From Pseudomonadota bacterium (GTDB lineage: Bacteria > Pseudomonadota > Alphaproteobacteria > Acetobacterales > Acetobacteraceae): a stretch of DNA of 64,000 bases. Where the stretch lies: contig JAJZBM010000002.1 in NCBI GenBank assembly GCA_021798915.1, positions 1 through 64,000 on the forward strand, written 5' to 3'. The notes beneath the pieces are model-generated. The model saw only the letters and a program-made list of their open reading frames with translations. It did no database searches and was not told the DNA's origin. Position numbers and translations under genes: made by a program. The number at the start of each line of letters is the position of its first letter. Position 1 is the first letter of the stretch. This document shows, piece by piece, positions 27,638 through 45,034 of the stretch.

Positions 27638-28246
27638 TCAGGCCTTGTTGCGCCGGCGCCGGGCGAGACCGAGGCCGATCAGGCCGCTGCCGAGCAGCGC
27701 GAGCGAGGCCGGCTCGGGGACGGTGTCCGGGCTAGGTGGCGAAGCGAGCGTGCTGCTTCCCGAGTAGGAAATATTGCCGTTGACGGAGGTTTCGGTGTAG
27801 GCGAAAGTTTCGCTCGCCGGACCAGCGGTATAAGTCGGCGTCAACGATCCCGCCGGCGTGAAAGTTCCGAGGGCATAGAGCGCCAGGGTGAAGGAGGTCG
27901 AGTTGTTCCCGCCCGGAGTGACGCTTTCGATGGTCCCGCTGAAAGAGCCGACGCTGCTCGTCCAGCTTACGGTTTCCCCATCCCTCGCTATCAAGGTGAA
28001 ATCCGACACCGGCGTGCCAGAAGTCACCGTACTGAAACCACCGCTTCCGGTCCCGAAGAAGTTAGAGGCATTGTTGATGGTCGCGTCGTAGGTAAGATTG
28101 CTCCCTGTGGGCGATGTCCCGACGGAAACGTCACTCATGGAAATCGAACCACTAATGGCCCCCGCCTGGGCTTTGCCCGGGGCGATGGCCAGCGCTGCCA
28201 CGGCGAGGCCGAGGAAGGCGGCGGTGGAAAGAAGTTTGGTTTTCAT
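27638..28246 (-). CDS. PEP-CTERM surface protein A
   Basis: A 202-residue exported protein. A signal peptide covers about residues 1-28 (hydrophobic TAAFLGLAVAALAIA, cleavage near KAQA-GA). The middle is Ser/Thr/Gly-rich, as in beta-rich surface proteins. It ends with VPEPASLALLGSGLIGLGLA and RRRR (from V176), the PEP-CTERM tripartite sorting tag cut by an exosortase. AAGGA precedes the ATG. The function of the body is unknown. It lies in tandem behind a second PEP-CTERM gene and has its own sigma-54 promoter 54 nt upstream. Confidence 0.9.
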   Translation of the reverse strand: MKTKLLSTAAFLGLAVAALAIAPGKAQAGAISGSISMSDVSVGTSPTGSNLTYDATINNASNFFGTGSGGFSTVTSGTPVSDFTLIARDGETVSWTSSVGSFSGTIESVTPGGNNSTSFTLALYALGTFTPAGSLTPTYTAGPASETFAYTETSVNGNISYSGSSTLASPPSPDTVPEPASLALLGSGLIGLGLARRRRNKA

Positions 28247-28376: not shown

Positions 28377-28392
28377 TGTTCAGTTTTCCGAC
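28377..28392 (-). promoter_or_regulatory. Candidate upstream activator site for PEP-CTERM gene A
   Basis: TGTTCAGTTTTCCGAC on the plus strand, ending 60 nt from the -24 edge of the promoter at 28300-28316. It also overlaps the stop codon of the upstream PEP-CTERM gene. The same word in the same sense and distance serves the next gene. Confidence 0.7.
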
Positions 28393-29117
28393 GATCCGGC
28401 CGGGTTTGCGCGCCGGCGGCGGGCAAAGGCGAGGCCGGCGAGGCTTGCGCCAAGCAGGCTGAGGGACGCCGGCTCCGGCACCGGATTGGTCTCGGAGAAT
28501 GAGAGGGTGTTATCCAAAAAAAACCCCGTACCGGTCGAAAGGGTGACGGCGGCCTGCAATGCATCGAGATTGGCGCCATTGCCGGTGATACTGCCGGCGA
28601 AGCTGCTGTCGACCGAGGAAAAAGAGAGCCCGCCATCGACCGGGGTATAGGTCACGCCGTTATCGGTGCTCGCCGAGAACGCCGCCGAAATCGCGCTGAG
28701 GGCGCCACCATTGGCGCCGGCGATCGTGCCGATGACCGGGCTGCCCCAGCCGGGCAGCGAAAGCCCGGTATCGCTGAGGGTAATGGTCAGGCTGCCGGCG
28801 CCAAAGCTATAGAAATAGCCGCCTGTCGTCGTCGTTAAAGAGAACCCCGGCAGGGCGGTTTGCGGCCCGATGGTGCCGGTTTCGGTCGAAAGCGTGCCCG
28901 AGAGAAAGAAATTATTGCCAGTGAAACCGAAATCATAAACGCCGGGCGTCGTGGTCGCGATCAGTCCGTTGCCCACGGTATCGGTGGCCGTAGCGGTCCT
29001 TCCGCCGGTATCCGCCTCGCTGAAGCTCAGGGTCAAAGCGGCCCGCGCCGGCGACGCCACGGCCAGAACCGCGGCGCCGACCAGCCATCCGAATTTCTTT
29101 CCGTGCATGAACGCCAT
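28380..29117 (-). CDS. PEP-CTERM surface protein B
   Basis: A 245-residue exported protein. Signal peptide about 1-26 (KKFGWLVGAAVLAVASPARA-A), a Gly/Ser/Thr-rich body, and a C-terminal tag VPEPASLSLLGASLAGLAFA then RRRR followed by a short tail PAGSSEN. ATG 29117 has GGAGG 8 nt upstream; the in-frame start further out (29198) does not. Its stop codon lies inside the activator motif of gene A. It has its own sigma-54 promoter with a leader of about 120 nt. The body has no recognisable domain. Confidence 0.88.
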   Translation of the reverse strand: MAFMHGKKFGWLVGAAVLAVASPARAALTLSFSEADTGGRTATATDTVGNGLIATTTPGVYDFGFTGNNFFLSGTLSTETGTIGPQTALPGFSLTTTTGGYFYSFGAGSLTITLSDTGLSLPGWGSPVIGTIAGANGGALSAISAAFSASTDNGVTYTPVDGGLSFSSVDSSFAGSITGNGANLDALQAAVTLSTGTGFFLDNTLSFSETNPVPEPASLSLLGASLAGLAFARRRRANPAGSSEN

Positions 29118-29247
29118 TTTCGCGCCCTCCGGCCATGCAACCGAAAAATCGCCTTGTGGCGTGACCCATGCCGCGGATGGCAAAGCTTTCCGCGGCAATC
29201 ACACCACGAAAGCGCGATTGCAGGAACATAGTCAGCGGAAATGACTA

Positions 29248-30494: not shown

Positions 30495-31202
30495 ATGAGC
30501 TGCATATTGAGCATTGATTCGCAAGGCGCGAGAGAACGGCGTCACGTTTCGCGCCGCGCGCTCGCCCTTTTGGCGCTCGCCCTCTTGGCGCTCGCCAGCT
30601 CGGTGGCGCCGCTGCGGGCAGCACCCATCGCCAGTTTCAATACCGGGCTCGCCGCCGATCAGAATTTTCTCTGGGGCCCCTCCGATGGCGGCTGGCTCTA
30701 CAAACCGGCCACGAGTTACGGCCTCGCCGGGATCGCCACCAGCTTCGCGGTGTTCGGCACGGCGCCGCATGATGTCGTCGTCGGGCTCTATGACGCGCTG
30801 CCTTCCGTCGGCGGCCATCTGCTCGGCAGTTTTTCGCTGGCCACCAATACCGGCCAAGGCGTCTGGGTGAGCGGCGATTTCGCCGCCGCCATCGCCTTGA
30901 CCGCCGGCAAGACGTATTTCCTCGACTTCTCTCATCTCGATGCCTTGAACATCGCAGCCCCCCCGGCCGGCGCCGGGCCGGTGAGCTTCAACCCCGCCGG
31001 CACCGCGCTCTCGCCGTTTTATTTCGATCAGTTGACCGCGACCCCGGGGATGGACCCCAACCTCGATATCTTCAGCGAGCCGCTGCTGCAATTCCTGCCC
31101 GCAACGACGTCCAACGCCGAGGGGGTTCCCGAGCCGGCGCCGCTGGCCATGCTCGCGAGCGGGCTTCTGATCCTTGCCCGGTTTCGTCGCCGGGCCGTGT
31201 GA
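30495..31202 (+). CDS. PEP-CTERM protein C
   Basis: About 235 residues. A basic stretch (GARERRHVSRR) leads into a hydrophobic signal (ALALLALALLALASSVAPLRA-A). The body (FLWGPSDGGWLYKPA, VVVGLYDALPSVGGHLLGSF) looks like a beta-sandwich, and the protein ends VPEPAPLAMLASGLLILARF-RRR, a PEP-CTERM tag. The start is uncertain: ATG 30495 gives a long pre-signal region and a TTG lies a few codons later. It is divergent from the GNAT gene. No sigma-54 site or activator motif lies upstream, unlike genes A and B. A dispersed palindrome follows the stop. Confidence 0.8.
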   Translation: MSCILSIDSQGARERRHVSRRALALLALALLALASSVAPLRAAPIASFNTGLAADQNFLWGPSDGGWLYKPATSYGLAGIATSFAVFGTAPHDVVVGLYDALPSVGGHLLGSFSLATNTGQGVWVSGDFAAAIALTAGKTYFLDFSHLDALNIAAPPAGAGPVSFNPAGTALSPFYFDQLTATPGMDPNLDIFSEPLLQFLPATTSNAEGVPEPAPLAMLASGLLILARFRRRAV

Positions 31203-38704: not shown

Positions 38705-39154
38705 CTATTCGACATAGATGCGGATTTCGCGCGCCGTCACGCCTTTTTCGGTCCGCGCCGAGGTGCGGATATCGTCGCCGGCGACGCCGTCATTGGTCAT
38801 CGCGTCCTCGAGCCGGCGCACATCATAGCGGCCGTTCTCGATGGCGCGGCTGTCCTTGTCGGGATCGCCGCTAGCCGGCACCACCGTCACGACCCGGTAT
38901 TTCGCGTCCGGGCGGCGGGTTTGCGCCATTTCCAGCACGGATTTGAGCTGTGCGTCATAGTTGAACGGGGTGCCGTCGAAGCGGATCGTCATCAGCGGCA
39001 GCTTGCTTCCGGGCTTCAGCGCCTCGGCGACGAAATCCGGCGCCGGCGCCACCGGCTTGGCGCCGAAAGTCGTCTGGTCGATGATTTTGCAGCCGCCGAG
39101 CAGCACGACCGCTGCGAGGGCGACGCCTGGGCGGAAGGATCGAGGACCGGGCAC
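38705..39154 (-). CDS. Small lipoprotein of unknown function
   Basis: 149 residues from GTG 39154. The N-terminus RPGVALAAVVLLGGCK has lipobox LGGC (Cys near 18). The rest is a compact domain with a charged middle (ENGRYDVRRLEDAMTNDG) and end (SARTEKGVTAREIRIYVE). I do not recognise the family. It starts 7 nt after the glycosyltransferase stop, so translation is probably coupled to it. Confidence 0.65.
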   Translation of the reverse strand: MPGPRSFRPGVALAAVVLLGGCKIIDQTTFGAKPVAPAPDFVAEALKPGSKLPLMTIRFDGTPFNYDAQLKSVLEMAQTRRPDAKYRVVTVVPASGDPDKDSRAIENGRYDVRRLEDAMTNDGVAGDDIRTSARTEKGVTAREIRIYVE

Positions 39155-39161
39155 CGCGGAT

Positions 39162-39953
39162 TTATCCCAGATCGGCGGCGGGTTTGGCAAGCGCCGGTCG
39201 TGGCCGCGCCCGGCGGCGCGGCGGCAAGGCGGGCGGCGCGGCGGCGGGTGGGACGAGGCCGAGGGCGACGCGCATCGCTTCCCCGGCGATGCGCGGGTGA
39301 TAGAGCGATCGCACCCGGGTTTGGCCGCGTGCGCCGATCGCCCGCGCCGCCTCGGGGTGGGTGTGGATGCGGCGCATCGCCCGCGCCGCTTCCTCGACAT
39401 CCGGATCGGCCCAATCCTGCCCCTCGGCGCCGGGATAATCCTCGACCGCGACCGGCACCCTCTGATAGCCGACGAGGAACGCCGTCTCGTGGTCGGCGAA
39501 ATCGCTGGTGCCGGAGTAATCGGTCGAGATCACCGGCTTGCCGAGCCACATCGCCTCGGCCGGGCCGCGCCCGAAGCCTTCGGCGCGGTGCAGCGAGACG
39601 AAGGCATCGGCGGCTTCGATCAGGGCGATGACCTCGGCGCGATCGATTTTGGCATCGCGGATTTCGATGCGCGGATCGAGGCAGAGATCGCCGAGGCGGC
39701 GCCAATCCTCCGGCGCGTGCTCGCCGCCCTGGGTCTTGATCAGCAGCCGGACCTTTTCCTCGCCGGCCGGGAAGGCGGCGCAAAACGCCTCCACCACCGC
39801 TTCCGGGTTTTTGCGCCGGACGTGGGAGAGGAAATCGAACATGAAGAGGAAAACGGTTTCGTCCTCGGCAAGGCCGGGTGCGGCGCGGTCTGGCCGGAGC
39901 CGGTCTTCGGGCAGGTGGACCACCGACGGCACCAAGCCTAGCGAACTTGACAT
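39162..39953 (-). pseudogene. Glycosyltransferase family 4, N-terminal half missing
   Basis: 263 residues covering only the C-terminal Rossmann half of a GT4 enzyme: FLFMFDFLSHVRRKNPEAVVEAF, LIKTQGGEHAPEDW, and the donor-sugar motif AEGFGRGPAEAMWLGKPVI with E-x7-E. Full GT4 enzymes have about 350-400 residues; the acceptor-binding half would lie upstream, but there the sequence turns AT-rich at about 39955 and codes another protein. The gene was probably cut by insertion or rearrangement at the island edge. A short ATG (39953) exists, so a truncated product could be made, but it should lack acceptor binding. Confidence 0.75.
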
Positions 39954-39978
39954 TGCTCGTCAACGCTGTCCAGATCGC

Positions 39979-40704
39979 CTACGGTTCCATGAAAATAAAT
40001 CTAGACACAACAAAAATTAAGAGCACAAAATAAAAAACGAAAGGCGGCTCCGGAATTGGATCGCTTCCCCCCGAAATATTCTGGCCAATGACTGTTACCT
40101 GACCAAATTCAAATGAAGGCACCCCGCTTGAAGCTATCATCTCGTTAAATTCGCCGCCGTTAACTCCAGAAACATTTAAATAAAAAGTTCCACCAAAAAC
40201 CTGAGATCCAACATAGAAATTTTCTACGTTACTCGCCAAAGCTATAAGTTCGGCTCCGCTTATTTGACCAATCAATGATCCATTATTATAAAAAGTTAAC
40301 AAATTTCCGTTTGTCTCTGTGTCAACTGACCCCCACAGTATCCCAATATAAAATTGCTCATAATAAAAATTAAAAACTATAGAACCCGTTTCTGTTGAAT
40401 AGTAATTATCAGAATAAGCATTACCATTTGAAAGTATTGGAGCGGCGTAACCGCCTCCTATAGCATAATTATTTGTCCCATTTACAACATGACTGCCATT
40501 ATCGAATGTTAAACTGGCAATTCCAGGGAACGTGATGGCAGAATAGCCCGTTGACGTTGGAATGAGTTGTTCAGCAGCCCGCCCGGCAGGAGGAGTCGCG
40601 GCCCCTTCTTGCGTCGAGACATAATATAGCAAGGATGGCCCAGCATCCGCGCGCGGGCAAATAAGGCAAATCGCTAGAAAAATGTATGCCGCAAACGTTC
40701 GCAT
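39979..40704 (-). CDS. PEP-CTERM-like exported protein D with atypical tail
   Basis: 241 residues. Signal peptide about 1-21 (FAAYIFLAICLICPRADA-G). The body is Asn/Tyr/Gly-rich (SLTFDNGSHVVNGTNNYAI, YYEQFYIGILWGSVDT), resembling exosortase-dependent surface proteins with a carbohydrate-binding-like fold. It ends IPEPPFVFYFVLLIFVVSRF-IFMEP: PEP and a hydrophobic helix, but only one Arg instead of a basic cluster. The stop lies about 25 bases from the broken glycosyltransferase, so the tail may have been altered at the junction. AT-rich codons. Confidence 0.7.
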   Translation of the reverse strand: MRTFAAYIFLAICLICPRADAGPSLLYYVSTQEGAATPPAGRAAEQLIPTSTGYSAITFPGIASLTFDNGSHVVNGTNNYAIGGGYAAPILSNGNAYSDNYYSTETGSIVFNFYYEQFYIGILWGSVDTETNGNLLTFYNNGSLIGQISGAELIALASNVENFYVGSQVFGGTFYLNVSGVNGGEFNEMIASSGVPSFEFGQVTVIGQNISGGSDPIPEPPFVFYFVLLIFVVSRFIFMEP

Positions 40705-40924
40705 CGTAGCCGCCCCCGCACTGCATACGAAAGGATACGAATCGGATTACTCCGAACAGGGGGAGTGGAACAACCGACAAACAAGGGTAAATTTCCGTTT
40801 GTCGCTCAACCAGGGCGTGAACGCCGAGGCATCGTCTCGAATAAAATCATTGACAAACTGACGGTGGGTATGCCGAAATATAAATAATGTTAGGTTCAAT
40901 CTCTATGTTACGGGGCAGAAAATT

Positions 40925-41134
40925 ATGAAAGGCAGACAAAACTCAGAGGATATATGGCGGTTGGCAATAATGATGATCGAAAAACACGCTGATAACGCGG
41001 CCGATTACGCTATGGGTCACGCATTGGAGATGCGCGGCCGGGGAGACGTTAATGGCGAAATTGTTTGGCTTAAAGTGTTTGATAGCATACGAGCACTAAA
41101 ATACAAAAACTCTGAGAACAAAATCCTGCATTGA
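40925..41134 (+). CDS. Small DUF6961-like protein
   Basis: 69 residues, soluble and mostly helical. The pattern EDIWRLAIMMIEKHADNAADY then GDVNGEIVWLKVFDSIRAL matches the short alphaproteobacterial DUF6961 family of unknown function (from memory, not searched). A TTGACA at 40850 may be its -35, but no -10 falls at the right distance. It is the only plus-strand gene in the island. Confidence 0.6.
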   Translation: MKGRQNSEDIWRLAIMMIEKHADNAADYAMGHALEMRGRGDVNGEIVWLKVFDSIRALKYKNSENKILH

Positions 41135-41154
41135 GTCCGATCCGTGTCGTAGAA

Positions 41155-42078
41155 TTAAATCTTCGCTTGGTGTCTTGATTTATTTGTGAGTCGCACGAAC
41201 GACCACAGTCCAAGCGCACCAAGCCCGAATAAAAGGCCTAACGGTGGTTCAGGCACGGCGCTTCCCGCCTGGATGGTTTCTGTTACCGACGATTGGAGAC
41301 TAAGTGTATATGTTACTCCATTATCTAACCTAGGAGTAACGATAGAGTAGGTTCCGCTGCTAGAATACGGGGAGCTGCCCGTGCCATTCGAAGAACTAAC
41401 TGCCACCTGCCCGTTGATTCCGAACGGAAATGCGGAGAATGAGGTACCGTTACTGCCGTTGAGAACCAAGGCGTTTAGGGCACTTGCAGACGCCGACTCA
41501 CCTAAAAAGCCAGAAGATGCGCCTGCCGTAGTGGCCACAAGCTCGGTTGTTTCTTGGAAAATTATATCAAGGGGATAGCCAGCGCCAGAAAACGTAAAGT
41601 TAATATAGGCAACATTTGCCGCTGAAGAACTCCCTAATGCATTCCCATAAGCTTCAGCGACATTCGAAACAGAGCTGCCCCCCATAACTCCTGGCCCGGG
41701 CGCAACCAGCGCCCCGATCACCGCGTCTGCACGAGCACCAATCATGTTGCCTGGGCCAACGGCGGTGAAGCTTGCTGGGGGCGTCGAAGACAATGGACCT
41801 GAAAACGCTTGCGGAATGCTTAGGGCCGAATTAATTGCCCCACTGCCTTGGTATCCGGAAATTCCATATCCGTCATATTGAGCGCTATCGCTGATAGCTT
41901 CCTGGCTTCCTGAATTCAAAGGAATAGACACCAATTCGCCTGTGTCGGAATTTTCGACCTGAAGATTGGTGATTTGATCCGAGGCAAAGGCATAAGGATA
42001 GATCGCTGTCGCATGCGCTGCGATGGGGGCAGCTACAGCTAACATGCTGATCGTCAGAGCAAAATAGCGCCTTCTCAT
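41155..42078 (-). CDS. PEP-CTERM surface protein E
   Basis: 307 residues. Signal peptide about 1-24 (FALTISMLAVAAPIAAHA-T), a long Ser/Gly/Asn-rich body (SSSAANVAYINFTFSGAGY, SSNGTGSSPYSSSGTYSIV) and the tag VPEPPLGLLFGLGALGLWSF followed by V-R-L-T-N-K-S-R, a weak basic end. ATG 42078 has GGGAGG 8 nt upstream. Codon use is intermediate between the island and the core genome. No sigma-54 site was found upstream. Confidence 0.82.
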   Translation of the reverse strand: MRRRYFALTISMLAVAAPIAAHATAIYPYAFASDQITNLQVENSDTGELVSIPLNSGSQEAISDSAQYDGYGISGYQGSGAINSALSIPQAFSGPLSSTPPASFTAVGPGNMIGARADAVIGALVAPGPGVMGGSSVSNVAEAYGNALGSSSAANVAYINFTFSGAGYPLDIIFQETTELVATTAGASSGFLGESASASALNALVLNGSNGTSFSAFPFGINGQVAVSSSNGTGSSPYSSSGTYSIVTPRLDNGVTYTLSLQSSVTETIQAGSAVPEPPLGLLFGLGALGLWSFVRLTNKSRHQAKI

Positions 42079-42230
42079 GGTCCGGCCTCCCAATTGCGGG
42101 CCGCATTATCACTCTTTTGGGCAGGCCCAGGCAACCGGAAAATTAACACAATGCGGCTACCCGCAGCCGGCTAGCGGGCGTTAATCATTTTGCTAACATT
42201 TCAAGATTAGGAAATTTTATGAAATTCAGC

Positions 42231-42929
42231 TTAAAGCCGCTCCGCAAGAGACCGAAAATTACCAGCGCCAGACACGAGTAAAGAAAGAACTACATTGTCT
42301 TTTTTATATAATTTACCTTCCTCAAGAATTTTAAATCCAAAGCGGGTATAGAAATTCACATGTTGCGTTCGAACGGAAATTATAACTATATCTGCGCCTA
42401 AATTGAAAATTTTTTCTTTTATAAATCTATAAATAGATAGAAGAATTGGAATTCTATCATGCTTTTCTGATAGGCTAGCAAGTTTTGATATTTCAATTAT
42501 TTTCAAGTTATTCTGAATCAGGCAAAGTTTTTTTAATATATTTTTAGTTGTGTAATTAAATTGTGTGGCGCTCGGAAGTGCATCGTAGATATTGTTCATA
42601 ACTGAAGAATCAAAAAAACACAATCTTATTGTGGCAGTTGGAACTCCGCATTTGAATAGCACAGCTATTCTCGTAGAATGTACATTGTCAAATTCATCCT
42701 CCCAAGACTGTGTGTCTTTTTTTAAGATATATCCTCGCGCCGCATATGCCCTATAACGTATACGATACGCATCCGCCTTGAGCGAATTGGCGGTCACAAA
42801 TTGAACTGAAATATCATTAAATCTTAATTTGTAAAAATTAGATATATTTGATGGTGAATTTGGCGGGCTGACCCAGCCTAAATGGCGGTTAACACGCGAG
42901 TTATTTATTAACCAAATATTTGATAACAT
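42231..42929 (-). CDS. FeeM-like N-acyl amino acid synthase, PEP-CTERM/exosortase-associated
   Basis: 232 residues of the FeeM/autoinducer-synthase-like GNAT group. Known members join an acyl chain from acyl-ACP to an amino acid; a subset is linked to exosortase loci. Supporting segments are LKADAYRIRYRAYAARGYI (the R-Y-R-x-Y entry), a long loop, IRLCFFDSS, then IIEISKLASLSEKHDR and the late IVIISVRTQHVNFYTRFGFKIL acetyl-CoA/pantetheine-like fold. It is strongly AT-rich. It lies 152 nt upstream of PEP-CTERM gene E on the same strand. Substrate and product are not known. Confidence 0.75.
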   Translation of the reverse strand: MLSNIWLINNSRVNRHLGWVSPPNSPSNISNFYKLRFNDISVQFVTANSLKADAYRIRYRAYAARGYILKKDTQSWEDEFDNVHSTRIAVLFKCGVPTATIRLCFFDSSVMNNIYDALPSATQFNYTTKNILKKLCLIQNNLKIIEISKLASLSEKHDRIPILLSIYRFIKEKIFNLGADIVIISVRTQHVNFYTRFGFKILEEGKLYKKDNVVLSLLVSGAGNFRSLAERL

Positions 42930-43219
42930 AGTCTGTTATAATAATCTATTGTTTACTTCATTGTTTTCGGAATAAAGAATATTTTTTATACATTTTTCGA
43001 CATAGGCGCTTTTTGTAACATCATTTAAATCGGCAAAAACGTTCCGACATTCCCATAACATGTGCAAAACTATTGCGAATGTCTCTTTGTCGCGGTAATC
43101 TGATTGCATTTCTGGCTACCCCCATCAACCTTTGGTTGCTATATCATTGCTACGAATGAAAAACAACAGGGCAAAGGGAGAATCCGGAAAAATTCAATGT
43201 TTTGCATGAAATTACCGCG

Positions 43220-45034
43220 TCATTCCCCGGAGAGGTCGCGCCGGCGCCGGTCAAGCTCCTCGCTATAGCGGCGGAGCGCGTATTGTTCGGTAAGCAGGCC
43301 GATGACGCGGCCGCTTTCATGGCTGTCCACCACCGCCAGGGCGTCGCTCTCGGCCTGCTCGAAGGCACTGATCGCATCCTTGACGCTCATTTGCGGCAGC
43401 AGCGCCCGGTCGGCGTGATGGAGGATATCGGCGAGCCTGGCCGTGCCGTCCACGGCATGGGCCTCGGCGACCAGGACGATGCCGGCATAGCGGCCGGCCT
43501 GATCGACGATGATCACGCGCTGCTCCGAGCCGAGCGGAAAATCGCGGCGGAAATTGACGAGTGGCGTATCGACGCGAATGGTCCGCACCTCGCGGCGCAT
43601 CATCCGCCCGACGGTGAGATTGCGCATCCAGCCGACATCGACGGCGCTGCGGATCGCCTCGCCGCGCAGATGGAAACGCCAGGTGGCGAAGGAATAGCCG
43701 AAGGTGCGGCGCACGGTGAGCGCCGAGATCACCGAGGCGGCGAGCACGGCGATAGTGAGCGGCAGGCTGCCTGTGCTCTCAAGGGCCAGAAACGCCATCG
43801 TCAGCGGGCCGCCGACGATCGCGGTCGCAAGGCCGCTCATGCCGACGACGGCGCAGACCACGCCGGGCAGCAAGGTTTTCACCGTCAGCGCCGCGAGCAC
43901 GGCGGCGAACAGCTTGCCGAGCATGGCGCCGAGGAAGAGCGAGGCGAAGAACAACCCACCGCGAAAGCCCGAGCCGATCGAAATCGCCGAGGCGGCGGCC
44001 TTGAGCAGCACCAGCAGGATGAGAAACGGCAGCGAATAGGGGGCATTGATGCCGAGATGCAGCGCCGCGTGGCCGGAAGAGAGCACTTGCGGCGTCACCA
44101 GGGCCATGATCCCGACCGCGAGCCCGCCGATCGCCGGGCGCAGCCAGGCCGGCACGCCGCTGTGGCGGAACACCTCCTCGGTCAGTGTCACCGCGCGCAT
44201 GATGGCGATTCCGAACAGCGCGCACACCATGCCGAGCGCCAGCACCGGGATATAGTCGAAGGGCGGGATGGTGCTGGGCAGGATCATCTCGAAGCCGCCC
44301 GGATCGCCGAGCAGCCAGCGATCGACGGCGATCGCCGAGATCGAGGCGACCACCACCGGCGCCAGCGTCACCAGCGAATAGGTGCCGATCACCAGCTCGA
44401 ACGCATAGAATGCGCCGGTGAGCGGGGCATTGAACGCCGCCCCGATCGCGCCCGCCGCGCCGCAGCCGACCAGGAGGCGGAGATCATTCCGCCGCACCCG
44501 GAAGTTCCGCCCGAGCCGCGAGCCGAGCGCAGCGCCAATCTGGCTGTAGCCGGCTTCCAGCCCGACCGAGGCGCCGACGCCATTGGAAAAAATGGTTTGC
44601 AGCATGACGATCAGACTGTCGTTCAGCGACATGCGCCCGCCATAGAGGGCGTTGGCCTCGATCGGGTCGACCGCGCGGCGCGGCCAGAAACGCGCGATCG
44701 CAAGGCCGGCGAGGCCGAGCGTGAGGCCGCCGATGCTCGGCACCAGGAGCGAGCGGCCGCGATCGAGCCTCGCCATGCCGCTCAATCGCTCATGTCCGTA
44801 GATCAGAAACAGCGCGTGATGCATCTCCAGCGTCACGATATTCATCAGAACGACGCAGAGCCCGGCGCCGCAGCCGACCAGCGCGGCCAGCGCCACCAGC
44901 CAGATTTCGTCGGCGCGCACCAGGGCGCGCAGCGTCTGCGGCACATGGAGGACAAATTCACCGAGCGGCCGCCGTGGCCGGAGCGGCAGCGGCCGTTCGC
45001 GCCGCACCGCCGAGAGGGGGGAGAAAACGCTCAT
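43220..45034 (-). CDS. ClC-family chloride channel/antiporter with CBS domains
   Basis: 604 residues: about ten ClC helices in residues 40-450, then two CBS domains (about 470-595; VGRMMRREVRTIRVDTPL and LLPQMSVKDAISAFEQAESDALAVVDS). The gating glutamate is in NGVGASVGLEAGYSQIG, and GCGAAGAIGAAFNAPLTGAFYAFE and GSGFRGGLFFASLFLGAMLG mark the other pore loops. Usual full length for ClC-CBS fusions. CBS domains suggest adenine-nucleotide control. It ends at the island border; the gene itself is intact. Confidence 0.93.
   Translation of the reverse strand: MSVFSPLSAVRRERPLPLRPRRPLGEFVLHVPQTLRALVRADEIWLVALAALVGCGAGLCVVLMNIVTLEMHHALFLIYGHERLSGMARLDRGRSLLVPSIGGLTLGLAGLAIARFWPRRAVDPIEANALYGGRMSLNDSLIVMLQTIFSNGVGASVGLEAGYSQIGAALGSRLGRNFRVRRNDLRLLVGCGAAGAIGAAFNAPLTGAFYAFELVIGTYSLVTLAPVVVASISAIAVDRWLLGDPGGFEMILPSTIPPFDYIPVLALGMVCALFGIAIMRAVTLTEEVFRHSGVPAWLRPAIGGLAVGIMALVTPQVLSSGHAALHLGINAPYSLPFLILLVLLKAAASAISIGSGFRGGLFFASLFLGAMLGKLFAAVLAALTVKTLLPGVVCAVVGMSGLATAIVGGPLTMAFLALESTGSLPLTIAVLAASVISALTVRRTFGYSFATWRFHLRGEAIRSAVDVGWMRNLTVGRMMRREVRTIRVDTPLVNFRRDFPLGSEQRVIIVDQAGRYAGIVLVAEAHAVDGTARLADILHHADRALLPQMSVKDAISAFEQAESDALAVVDSHESGRVIGLLTEQYALRRYSEELDRRRRDLSGE

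What the first reader, a model, noticed from the sequence alone, without database searches (positions are those of the whole stretch)
39954..43219. AT-rich island carrying PEP-CTERM proteins and a FeeM-like acyltransferase
A sharp base-composition drop with genes all tied to exosortase biology, inserted so that it cuts a glycosyltransferase. This suggests transfer of a surface-protein/acyl-amino-acid module without its exosortase. No integrase is visible.
Basis: partly seen in the sequence, partly recalled or inferred. Interest (0 to 1): 0.65.

Follow-up and report, generated by a model that had tools for sequence, protein, structure and literature searches.

The report
Swappable surface-protein and lipid gene cassette
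A short AT-rich block that replaced most of a sugar-transferase gene carries two surface proteins and an enzyme likely to make fatty-acid-linked amino acids; relatives hold different versions at the same spot, so the block is real and probably imported, but its gene partnership was already known.

Summary
Window 39944-43216 has 43.5% GC against 66.8% elsewhere, with sharp edges. It carries two PEP-CTERM-type proteins, a FeeM-type N-acyl amino acid synthase and two small ORFs. The ancestral order, an intact ~1270-aa glycosyltransferase beside a ClC channel, survives in one congener and in Acidicaldus; here only a 263-codon C-terminal stub remains.

"Without its exosortase" is wrong for the genome: XrtA lies on another contig, with 19 other PEP-CTERM matches above cut-off. 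"Transfer" needs refining: 5 of 6 genus genomes have an AT-rich block here, with differing contents (FeeM in two; a 30%-identical FeeM; PepA + TIGR03694 acyltransferase + ThiF-nitroreductase; no acyltransferase). Against G003, synonymous sites are saturated in the island but half-saturated in the flanks, so cassettes were probably exchanged or acquired more than once. FeeM and TIGR03694 are complementary, three genomes each. PEP2 relatives in three other genera sit beside TIGR03694 acyltransferases.

Most likely a biofilm-matrix cassette serving the resident XrtA system. The synthase/PEP-CTERM link is published (Craig 2011, known here from citations, not read); the exchange site is the new part.

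The parts
39944..43216 (.). AT-rich cassette; the left edge is where glycosyltransferase homology stops (39934-39935), the right edge lies a few bases from the ClC stop codon
   Evidence: GC 0.435 against 0.668; junction comparison with uncut and other islands
39162..39953 (-). C-terminal stub (263 codons) of a ~1270-aa glycosyltransferase; GT4-type domain only
   Evidence: Pfam Glyco_trans_1_4 5e-12; aligns from about residue 1040 of the intact gene of contig C16; intact 1273-aa gene in G004
39979..40704 (-). PEP1: Npun_F0296-type exosortase-dependent surface protein; C-terminus PEP motif + hydrophobic stretch, without a clear basic cluster
   Evidence: NCBIfam NF050191 31.8 bits, cut-off 29; 88% identical in G005, 59% in G003
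40925..41134 (+). sORF+: 69-aa conserved small protein, function unknown; found in all five genus islands, split across contigs in G005
   Evidence: alignment, profile hits, 27 of 299 family genomes; no Pfam or NCBIfam match
41155..42093 (-). PEP2: PEP-CTERM-type surface protein (ATG start probably 42078)
   Evidence: PEP-CTERM motif below cut-offs; relatives in three other genera beside TIGR03694 acyltransferases
42231..42929 (-). FeeM-type N-acyl amino acid synthase
   Evidence: Pfam PF21926 1.5e-19; alignment; fold like FeeM 2g0b, tied with LasI
42936..43109 (-). sORF-: 57-aa conserved small protein directly upstream of the FeeM-type gene, probably co-transcribed; function unknown
   Evidence: present in all five genus islands; no Pfam or NCBIfam match
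43220..45034 (-). Right flank: ClC-type chloride channel/antiporter, conserved anchor of the site
   Evidence: Pfam Voltage_CLC 5.9e-69; same place in all six genus genomes
38705..39145 (-). Left flank: conserved part of a small gene that follows the glycosyltransferase (start codon uncertain)
   Evidence: same order in the genus and in Acidicaldus

Best explanation
A chromosomal cassette site. In this genus a large glycosyltransferase gene between a ClC channel gene and a small conserved gene was broken and largely replaced by AT-rich cassettes, most of which pair exosortase-type surface proteins with an N-acyltransferase of the LuxI/FeeM superfamily. In this genome PEP1 and PEP2 would be exported by Sec, processed at the C-terminus by the resident XrtA exosortase encoded elsewhere, and built into the extracellular matrix. 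The FeeM-type enzyme, probably co-transcribed with sORF-, would join a long acyl chain from acyl-ACP to an amino acid, and the amphipathic product most likely acts in or on that matrix. SHOWN: the block and its ends, the uncut ancestral state, the gene families, an XrtA gene in trans, purifying selection on the three large genes against the sister genome, different cassettes in relatives. INFERRED: the enzyme's product, sorting of PEP1 and PEP2, the matrix role, and exchange of cassettes through the conserved flanks.
For: Uncut order in G004 and Acidicaldus. XrtA (277.7 bits, cut-off 208) beside a TIGR03087 XrtA-system glycosyltransferase on contig C1. PF21926 match and FeeM-like fold. dN/dS 0.21-0.25 for PEP1, PEP2 and FeeM against G005. 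Island composition unlike 19 other PEP-CTERM genes of the genome. G000 against G003: fourfold sites 0.91-1.15 of saturation in the island, 0.50-0.52 in the flanks; G000 against G005: 0.26-0.35 and 0.21-0.28. PEP2 relatives next to a TIGR03694 acyltransferase in 3 of 3 readable loci of other genera. In Methylomonas sp. [quoted passage not shown]
Against: No expression or product data. PEP1's tail lacks a clear basic cluster and PEP2 scores below the PEP-CTERM cut-offs. The fold model is middling (mean pLDDT 61) and LasI ties with FeeM. G002 has a block with both small ORFs but no acyltransferase in it, so the pair is not obligatory. G004 has 14 PEP-CTERM matches and a TIGR03694 gene but no detectable PF09721 exosortase. 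FeeM genes of five other family genomes show no PEP-CTERM-like ORF within about 1.5 kb (wider stretches of four of them, likewise). In the Methylomonas work mutants also failed to grow in the gradient, so the band effect may be indirect.
Confidence: 0.55

Rival explanations
1. Same genes, but the N-acyl amino acid is a diffusible signal or antibacterial compound; the surface proteins are neighbours or co-regulated targets rather than partners in a matrix.
For: The enzyme superfamily includes the AHL synthases; LasI ties with FeeM in the structure comparison. N-acyl tyrosines of Stieleria alter the species make-up of biofilms (PMC7293339, title and abstract start, passages).
Against: No LuxR-type or other recognised receptor or regulator in the block. 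Pairing of PEP2-type proteins with an acyltransferase recurs in other genera.
Confidence: 0.2
2. The N-acyl amino acid is consumed by the exosortase as nucleophile or lipid anchor, so that mature PEP2 carries it.
For: Pairing of surface protein and acyltransferase despite change of enzyme subfamily; anchoring of PEP-CTERM proteins is discussed but unproven (PMC12188702, passages).
Against: Only 3 of 6 genus genomes have FeeM and 3 have TIGR03694, against 11-19 PEP-CTERM matches in each; a general anchor would not need to sit beside one protein. No direct test.
Confidence: 0.12
3. On origin: one insertion in the ancestor of five species, followed by vertical descent and very fast evolution or gene loss, without exchange.
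For: Both small ORFs occur in all five islands; G000, G005 and G003 share order and orientation; the ClC tree does not contradict one gain.
Against: Saturated synonymous sites against G003 while flanks are about half-saturated, although island and flank rates are alike between G000 and G005; wholly different cargo in G001.
Confidence: 0.3
4. On function: decaying foreign DNA with no present role.
For: AT-rich; glycosyltransferase destroyed; sORF+ of G005 is split at a contig break with a weak IS66-like end (15.6 bits, cut-off 23.1); G002 lacks an acyltransferase here.
Against: Three large genes intact with dN/dS 0.21-0.25 between G000 and G005.
Confidence: 0.06

Closest known systems
[quoted passage not shown] not held; known from passages of PMC4897644, PMC8776678, PMC7293339 and PMC11072679)
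   Same: A synthase of this kind next to PEP-CTERM genes in a genome with an exosortase.
   Different: Here exosortase and polysaccharide genes are not beside the synthase; the pair sits in an AT-rich block whose content differs between congeners at one site.
FeeM, PDB 2g0b (Pfam PF21926)
   Same: Curated Pfam match; top fold match in both comparisons.
   Different: 18-19% identity; tied with LasI in Z (11.8 and 11.2); no acyl carrier protein gene recognised in the block.
PEP-CTERM/exosortase system-associated acyltransferase, NCBIfam TIGR03694
   Same: Same superfamily (the G001 and three other TIGR03694 proteins also pass Pfam FeeM); same kind of neighbour.
   Different: The window protein does not match TIGR03694; in the genus the two are found in different genomes.
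PepA (flocculation-associated PEP-CTERM protein) module, as in G001
   Same: Occupies the same site in G001 with a LuxI/FeeM-superfamily acyltransferase.
   Different: Other surface protein and acyltransferase, plus a ThiF-nitroreductase protein absent from the window's block; in G002 and G004 this module lies elsewhere.

Membership tests
FeeM N-acyl amino acid synthase (PF21926) | Curated Pfam score | tested here: met
   70.8 bits, cut-off 27
FeeM N-acyl amino acid synthase (PF21926) | GNAT/AHL-synthase-type fold closest to FeeM | tested here: inconclusive
   2g0b first by both programs, but LasI within 1 Z and model pLDDT 61
FeeM N-acyl amino acid synthase (PF21926) | Makes N-acyl amino acid from acyl-ACP | not testable with these tools
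   needs expression and mass spectrometry
TIGR03694 exosortase-associated acyltransferase | Curated NCBIfam score | tested here: not met
   no TIGR03694 match at E <= 1 for the window protein; none in G000
PEP-CTERM protein (PEP1) | PEP motif, hydrophobic stretch, basic C-terminus | tested here: inconclusive
   NCBIfam exosortase-dependent surface family above cut-off, but no PF07589 match and no clear basic cluster
PEP-CTERM protein (PEP2) | PEP-CTERM model score and tripartite tail | tested here: inconclusive
   below cut-off in Pfam and NCBIfam and at 19.6 bits against 20.7 in the genome search; tail visibly complete
XrtA exosortase system in this genome | Exosortase A gene present | tested here: met
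   TIGR03109 277.7 bits, cut-off 208, at G000:C1:34595-35335, with TIGR03087 beside it
Integrative mobile element | Integrase or transposase gene, tRNA target or flanking repeats | tested here: not met
   no such match among the block's ORFs tested, no tRNA in the window, no convincing flanking repeat

The most novel reading that the evidence does not exclude
The ClC-side site is a genus-wide exchange locus at which matched pairs of surface protein and N-acyltransferase, from different acyltransferase subfamilies, replace one another through the conserved flanks, much as capsule or O-antigen loci do; each surface protein would need the lipid made by its own partner, which would make that lipid part of exosortase sorting or display.
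Probability: 0.25. Interest if true: 0.65.

Novelty: new variant of a known kind. Interest (0 to 1): 0.42.

Why it matters
What N-acyl amino acid synthases do for the PEP-CTERM system is, to my knowledge, unsettled; [quoted passage not shown] A small natural cassette in which surface protein and acyltransferase lie together, two enzyme subfamilies distributed in complementary fashion within one genus, and uncut relatives for comparison offer a ready-made swap experiment: exchange the acyltransferase between partners and ask whether sorting or matrix formation follows the lipid.

Tried and rejected
Rejected: an orphan module in a genome without exosortase (XrtA found in trans). Rejected: a recent insertion confined to this strain (5 of 6 genus genomes have an AT-rich block here). 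Not relied on: contig C16 of the same assembly (3723 bp) holds a glycosyltransferase frame open from its start to the contig end, beside the ClC tail. Its ClC tail is 98.3-98.7% identical to G001 and about 87% to the window, so it looks like a stray contig of a G001-like organism. If so, that species would hold both the uncut and the replaced state; its provenance cannot be proved here, so I used it as a yardstick for glycosyltransferase homology and not as evidence on this genome.

Led nowhere: plasmid DNA search with the block (no match); phage tblastn with FeeM (no match); viral-contig scans with the sORF+ and FeeM alignments (no relative); phmmer of the FeeM-type protein against PDB (three ribosomal-protein sequences at E 0.042-0.2), after which a ten-member profile reached 2g0b at E 1.5e-4. 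A class-wide PEP2 profile search matched 13 of 385 genomes, this one included; the other 12 matched only over the C-terminal part. At most six candidates per genome were scored there (seven), so more distant full-length relatives are not excluded. Promoter- and terminator-like sites in the block are near the shuffled expectation (10 against a mean of 7.0, sd 2.3; 4 against 3.5, sd 1.8). Plasmid tblastn with FeeM gave three Acidiphilium plasmids at 24-26% identity over 62% of the query, too distant to name a donor. No donor was found.

Cautions on counts: the three-and-three complementarity of FeeM and TIGR03694 has probability 0.05 under random pairing with fixed margins, ignores relatedness, and rests partly on drafts (G002 86% and G003 90% complete). 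NG86 dS was undefined for PEP1 and PEP2 against G003, hence the fourfold-site measure; FeeM against G003 has only 21 usable fourfold sites. The invariant columns include the window protein by construction and were not mapped to FeeM's catalytic residues. The fourth PEP2 locus outside the genus (G134) runs into its contig end and was left out of the 3-of-3 count. PEP-CTERM loci L062 and L065 were not measured for GC. dN/dS of sORF- against G005 is 0.49, higher than for the large genes.
Full report
WHAT IS THERE. The block at 39944-43216 is real: GC 0.435 against 0.668 for the rest of the window, with the steepest steps at about 39988 and 43214; it holds all 25 of 634 sliding windows below 0.50. 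It encodes, on the minus strand except where noted, PEP1 (39979-40704), sORF+ (40925-41134, plus strand), PEP2 (41155-42093), a FeeM-type enzyme (42231-42929) and sORF- (42936-43109), between a glycosyltransferase stub and a ClC channel gene.

THE UNCUT SITE. In congener G004 the ClC gene is followed directly by an intact 1273-codon glycosyltransferase and then the small left-flank gene, without such a GC dip. The more distant Acidicaldus organivorans has the same order, with 232 N bases inside the glycosyltransferase. So I take the uncut order as ancestral. In the window, homology to the glycosyltransferase starts only near residue 1040: about 1030 residues are gone, not merely interrupted. 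In G003 and G002 N-terminal pieces of the gene survive on the ClC side of the block, so the lineages have different edges.

THE RELATIVES. Five of six genus genomes, this one included, carry an AT-rich block here. G005 has the same five parts as the window, split over two contigs inside sORF+, where a weak IS66-like end appears. G003 has the same order, with a FeeM of 30% identity. G002 has another surface protein (choice-of-anchor E domain; PEP-CTERM below cut-off) and both small ORFs, but no acyltransferase here. G001 has PepA, a TIGR03694 acyltransferase, a ThiF-nitroreductase protein and both small ORFs. Across the six, FeeM is found in G000, G003 and G005 and TIGR03694 in G001 at this site and in G002 and G004 elsewhere: none has both and none lacks both. 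With six genomes, two of them under or at 90% completeness, this is suggestive only.

EXCHANGE OR DESCENT. Fourfold-site differences, divided by the value expected at saturation for the base composition, are 0.26-0.35 in PEP1, PEP2 and FeeM and 0.21-0.28 in the flank genes for G000 against G005, so there the cassette was inherited with its surroundings. For G000 against G003 they are 0.91-1.15 in the island and 0.50-0.52 in the flanks. Island and flank therefore seem to have different histories, which points to separate acquisition or replacement of related cassettes; very fast evolution of AT-rich genes remains possible. The ClC tree joins G000 and G005 (99/99), places G001 and G002 with them (85/96) and leaves G003 and G004 outside; the left-flank tree is unresolved. 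The glycosyltransferase stub itself looks mosaic: 0.63 between G000 and G005, against 0.21 and 0.27 in its two neighbours.

FUNCTION. The FeeM-type protein passes the Pfam score, shares 15 invariant columns with nine relatives and is predicted to fold like FeeM, though the AHL synthase LasI ties with it and the model is middling. PEP1, PEP2 and FeeM show dN/dS 0.21-0.25 against G005 (ClC 0.13), as expected for working genes. The genome has an XrtA exosortase beside a TIGR03087 glycosyltransferase on contig C1 and 19 PEP-CTERM matches above cut-off, so PEP1 and PEP2 can be clients in trans. PEP2-type proteins are rare: 7 of 299 family genomes, this one included. In the three readable loci outside the genus all three lie beside a TIGR03694 acyltransferase, divergent in two and convergent in one. 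The pairing of this kind of surface protein with an N-acyltransferase thus holds although the enzyme subfamily differs. Against it: FeeM genes of five other family genomes show no PEP-CTERM-like ORF nearby (wider stretches of four of them), so FeeM itself is not always paired. Experimental support for a matrix role comes from Methylomonas sp. [quoted passage not shown] the mutant also failed to grow in that setting (PMC11072679, section 20). PepA is needed for floc formation in Aquincola (PMC9850573, title, passages).

EXOSORTASE ACROSS THE GENUS. PF09721 is found in 5 of 6 genomes, not in G004, although G004 has 14 PEP-CTERM matches. G004 is also the one without the island; with one genome this may be chance, a gap in the draft or another exosortase family.

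WHAT IS KNOWN. [quoted passage not shown] not held; known to me from passages of PMC4897644, PMC8776678, PMC7293339 and PMC11072679). PMC8776678 reports NasY homologues in its Acetobacteraceae set only in three Acidiphilium type strains (passage); the genus here is another member of that family. Searches for TIGR03694 (one paper) and for PEP-CTERM with genomic island, horizontal gene transfer and exosortase (five papers) listed nothing whose title or abstract start describes such an exchange site; that covers only the open-licence papers held.

ORGANISM. That the genus is Acidibrevibacterium is a guess from recall and genome size, not a result.

Noticed in passing
G000 contig C16, locus L011 1-3723: A 3.7-kb contig of the same assembly holds an uncut glycosyltransferase next to a ClC tail that is 98.3-98.7% identical to G001 and about 87% to the window; probably a stray contig of a related strain.
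   Followed up: partly
L011 about 240-295; at least 37 other places in G000: A terminator-like dispersed repeat of about 45 bp lies after the ClC stop in C16, G003 and G002 and is missing from the window; one search scored only 40 of 406 candidates, so 37 is a lower bound.
   Followed up: no
window 39162-39953: The glycosyltransferase stub diverges far more between G000 and G005 (0.63 of saturation) than its neighbours on either side (0.21 and 0.27), as if it had been swapped on its own.
   Followed up: no
L012 1-370 and L013 8570-8935 (G005 contigs C35 and C32): G005's copy of sORF+ is split at a contig break, with a weak IS66 transposase match (15.6 bits, cut-off 23.1) at the end of C32.
   Followed up: partly
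L077 and L078 (Acidiphilium plasmids): FeeM-like genes on plasmids, divergent from a gene for a protein with a winged-helix domain (tested in L077) and followed by a site-specific integrase gene.
   Followed up: partly
window 40925-41134 and 27 of 299 family genomes: sORF+ belongs to a wider family of small proteins, up to five matches in one genome (G292); one G292 copy matches DUF6961 weakly, below cut-off.
   Followed up: partly
window 27638-28246, 28380-29198 and about 31125: Three further PEP-CTERM matches in the same window, two above cut-off and the one near 31125 below it, with GC 0.63-0.64.
   Followed up: no
G004: Fourteen PEP-CTERM matches, a PepA/TIGR03694/ThiF module on contig C36, but no PF09721 exosortase found.
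   Followed up: no
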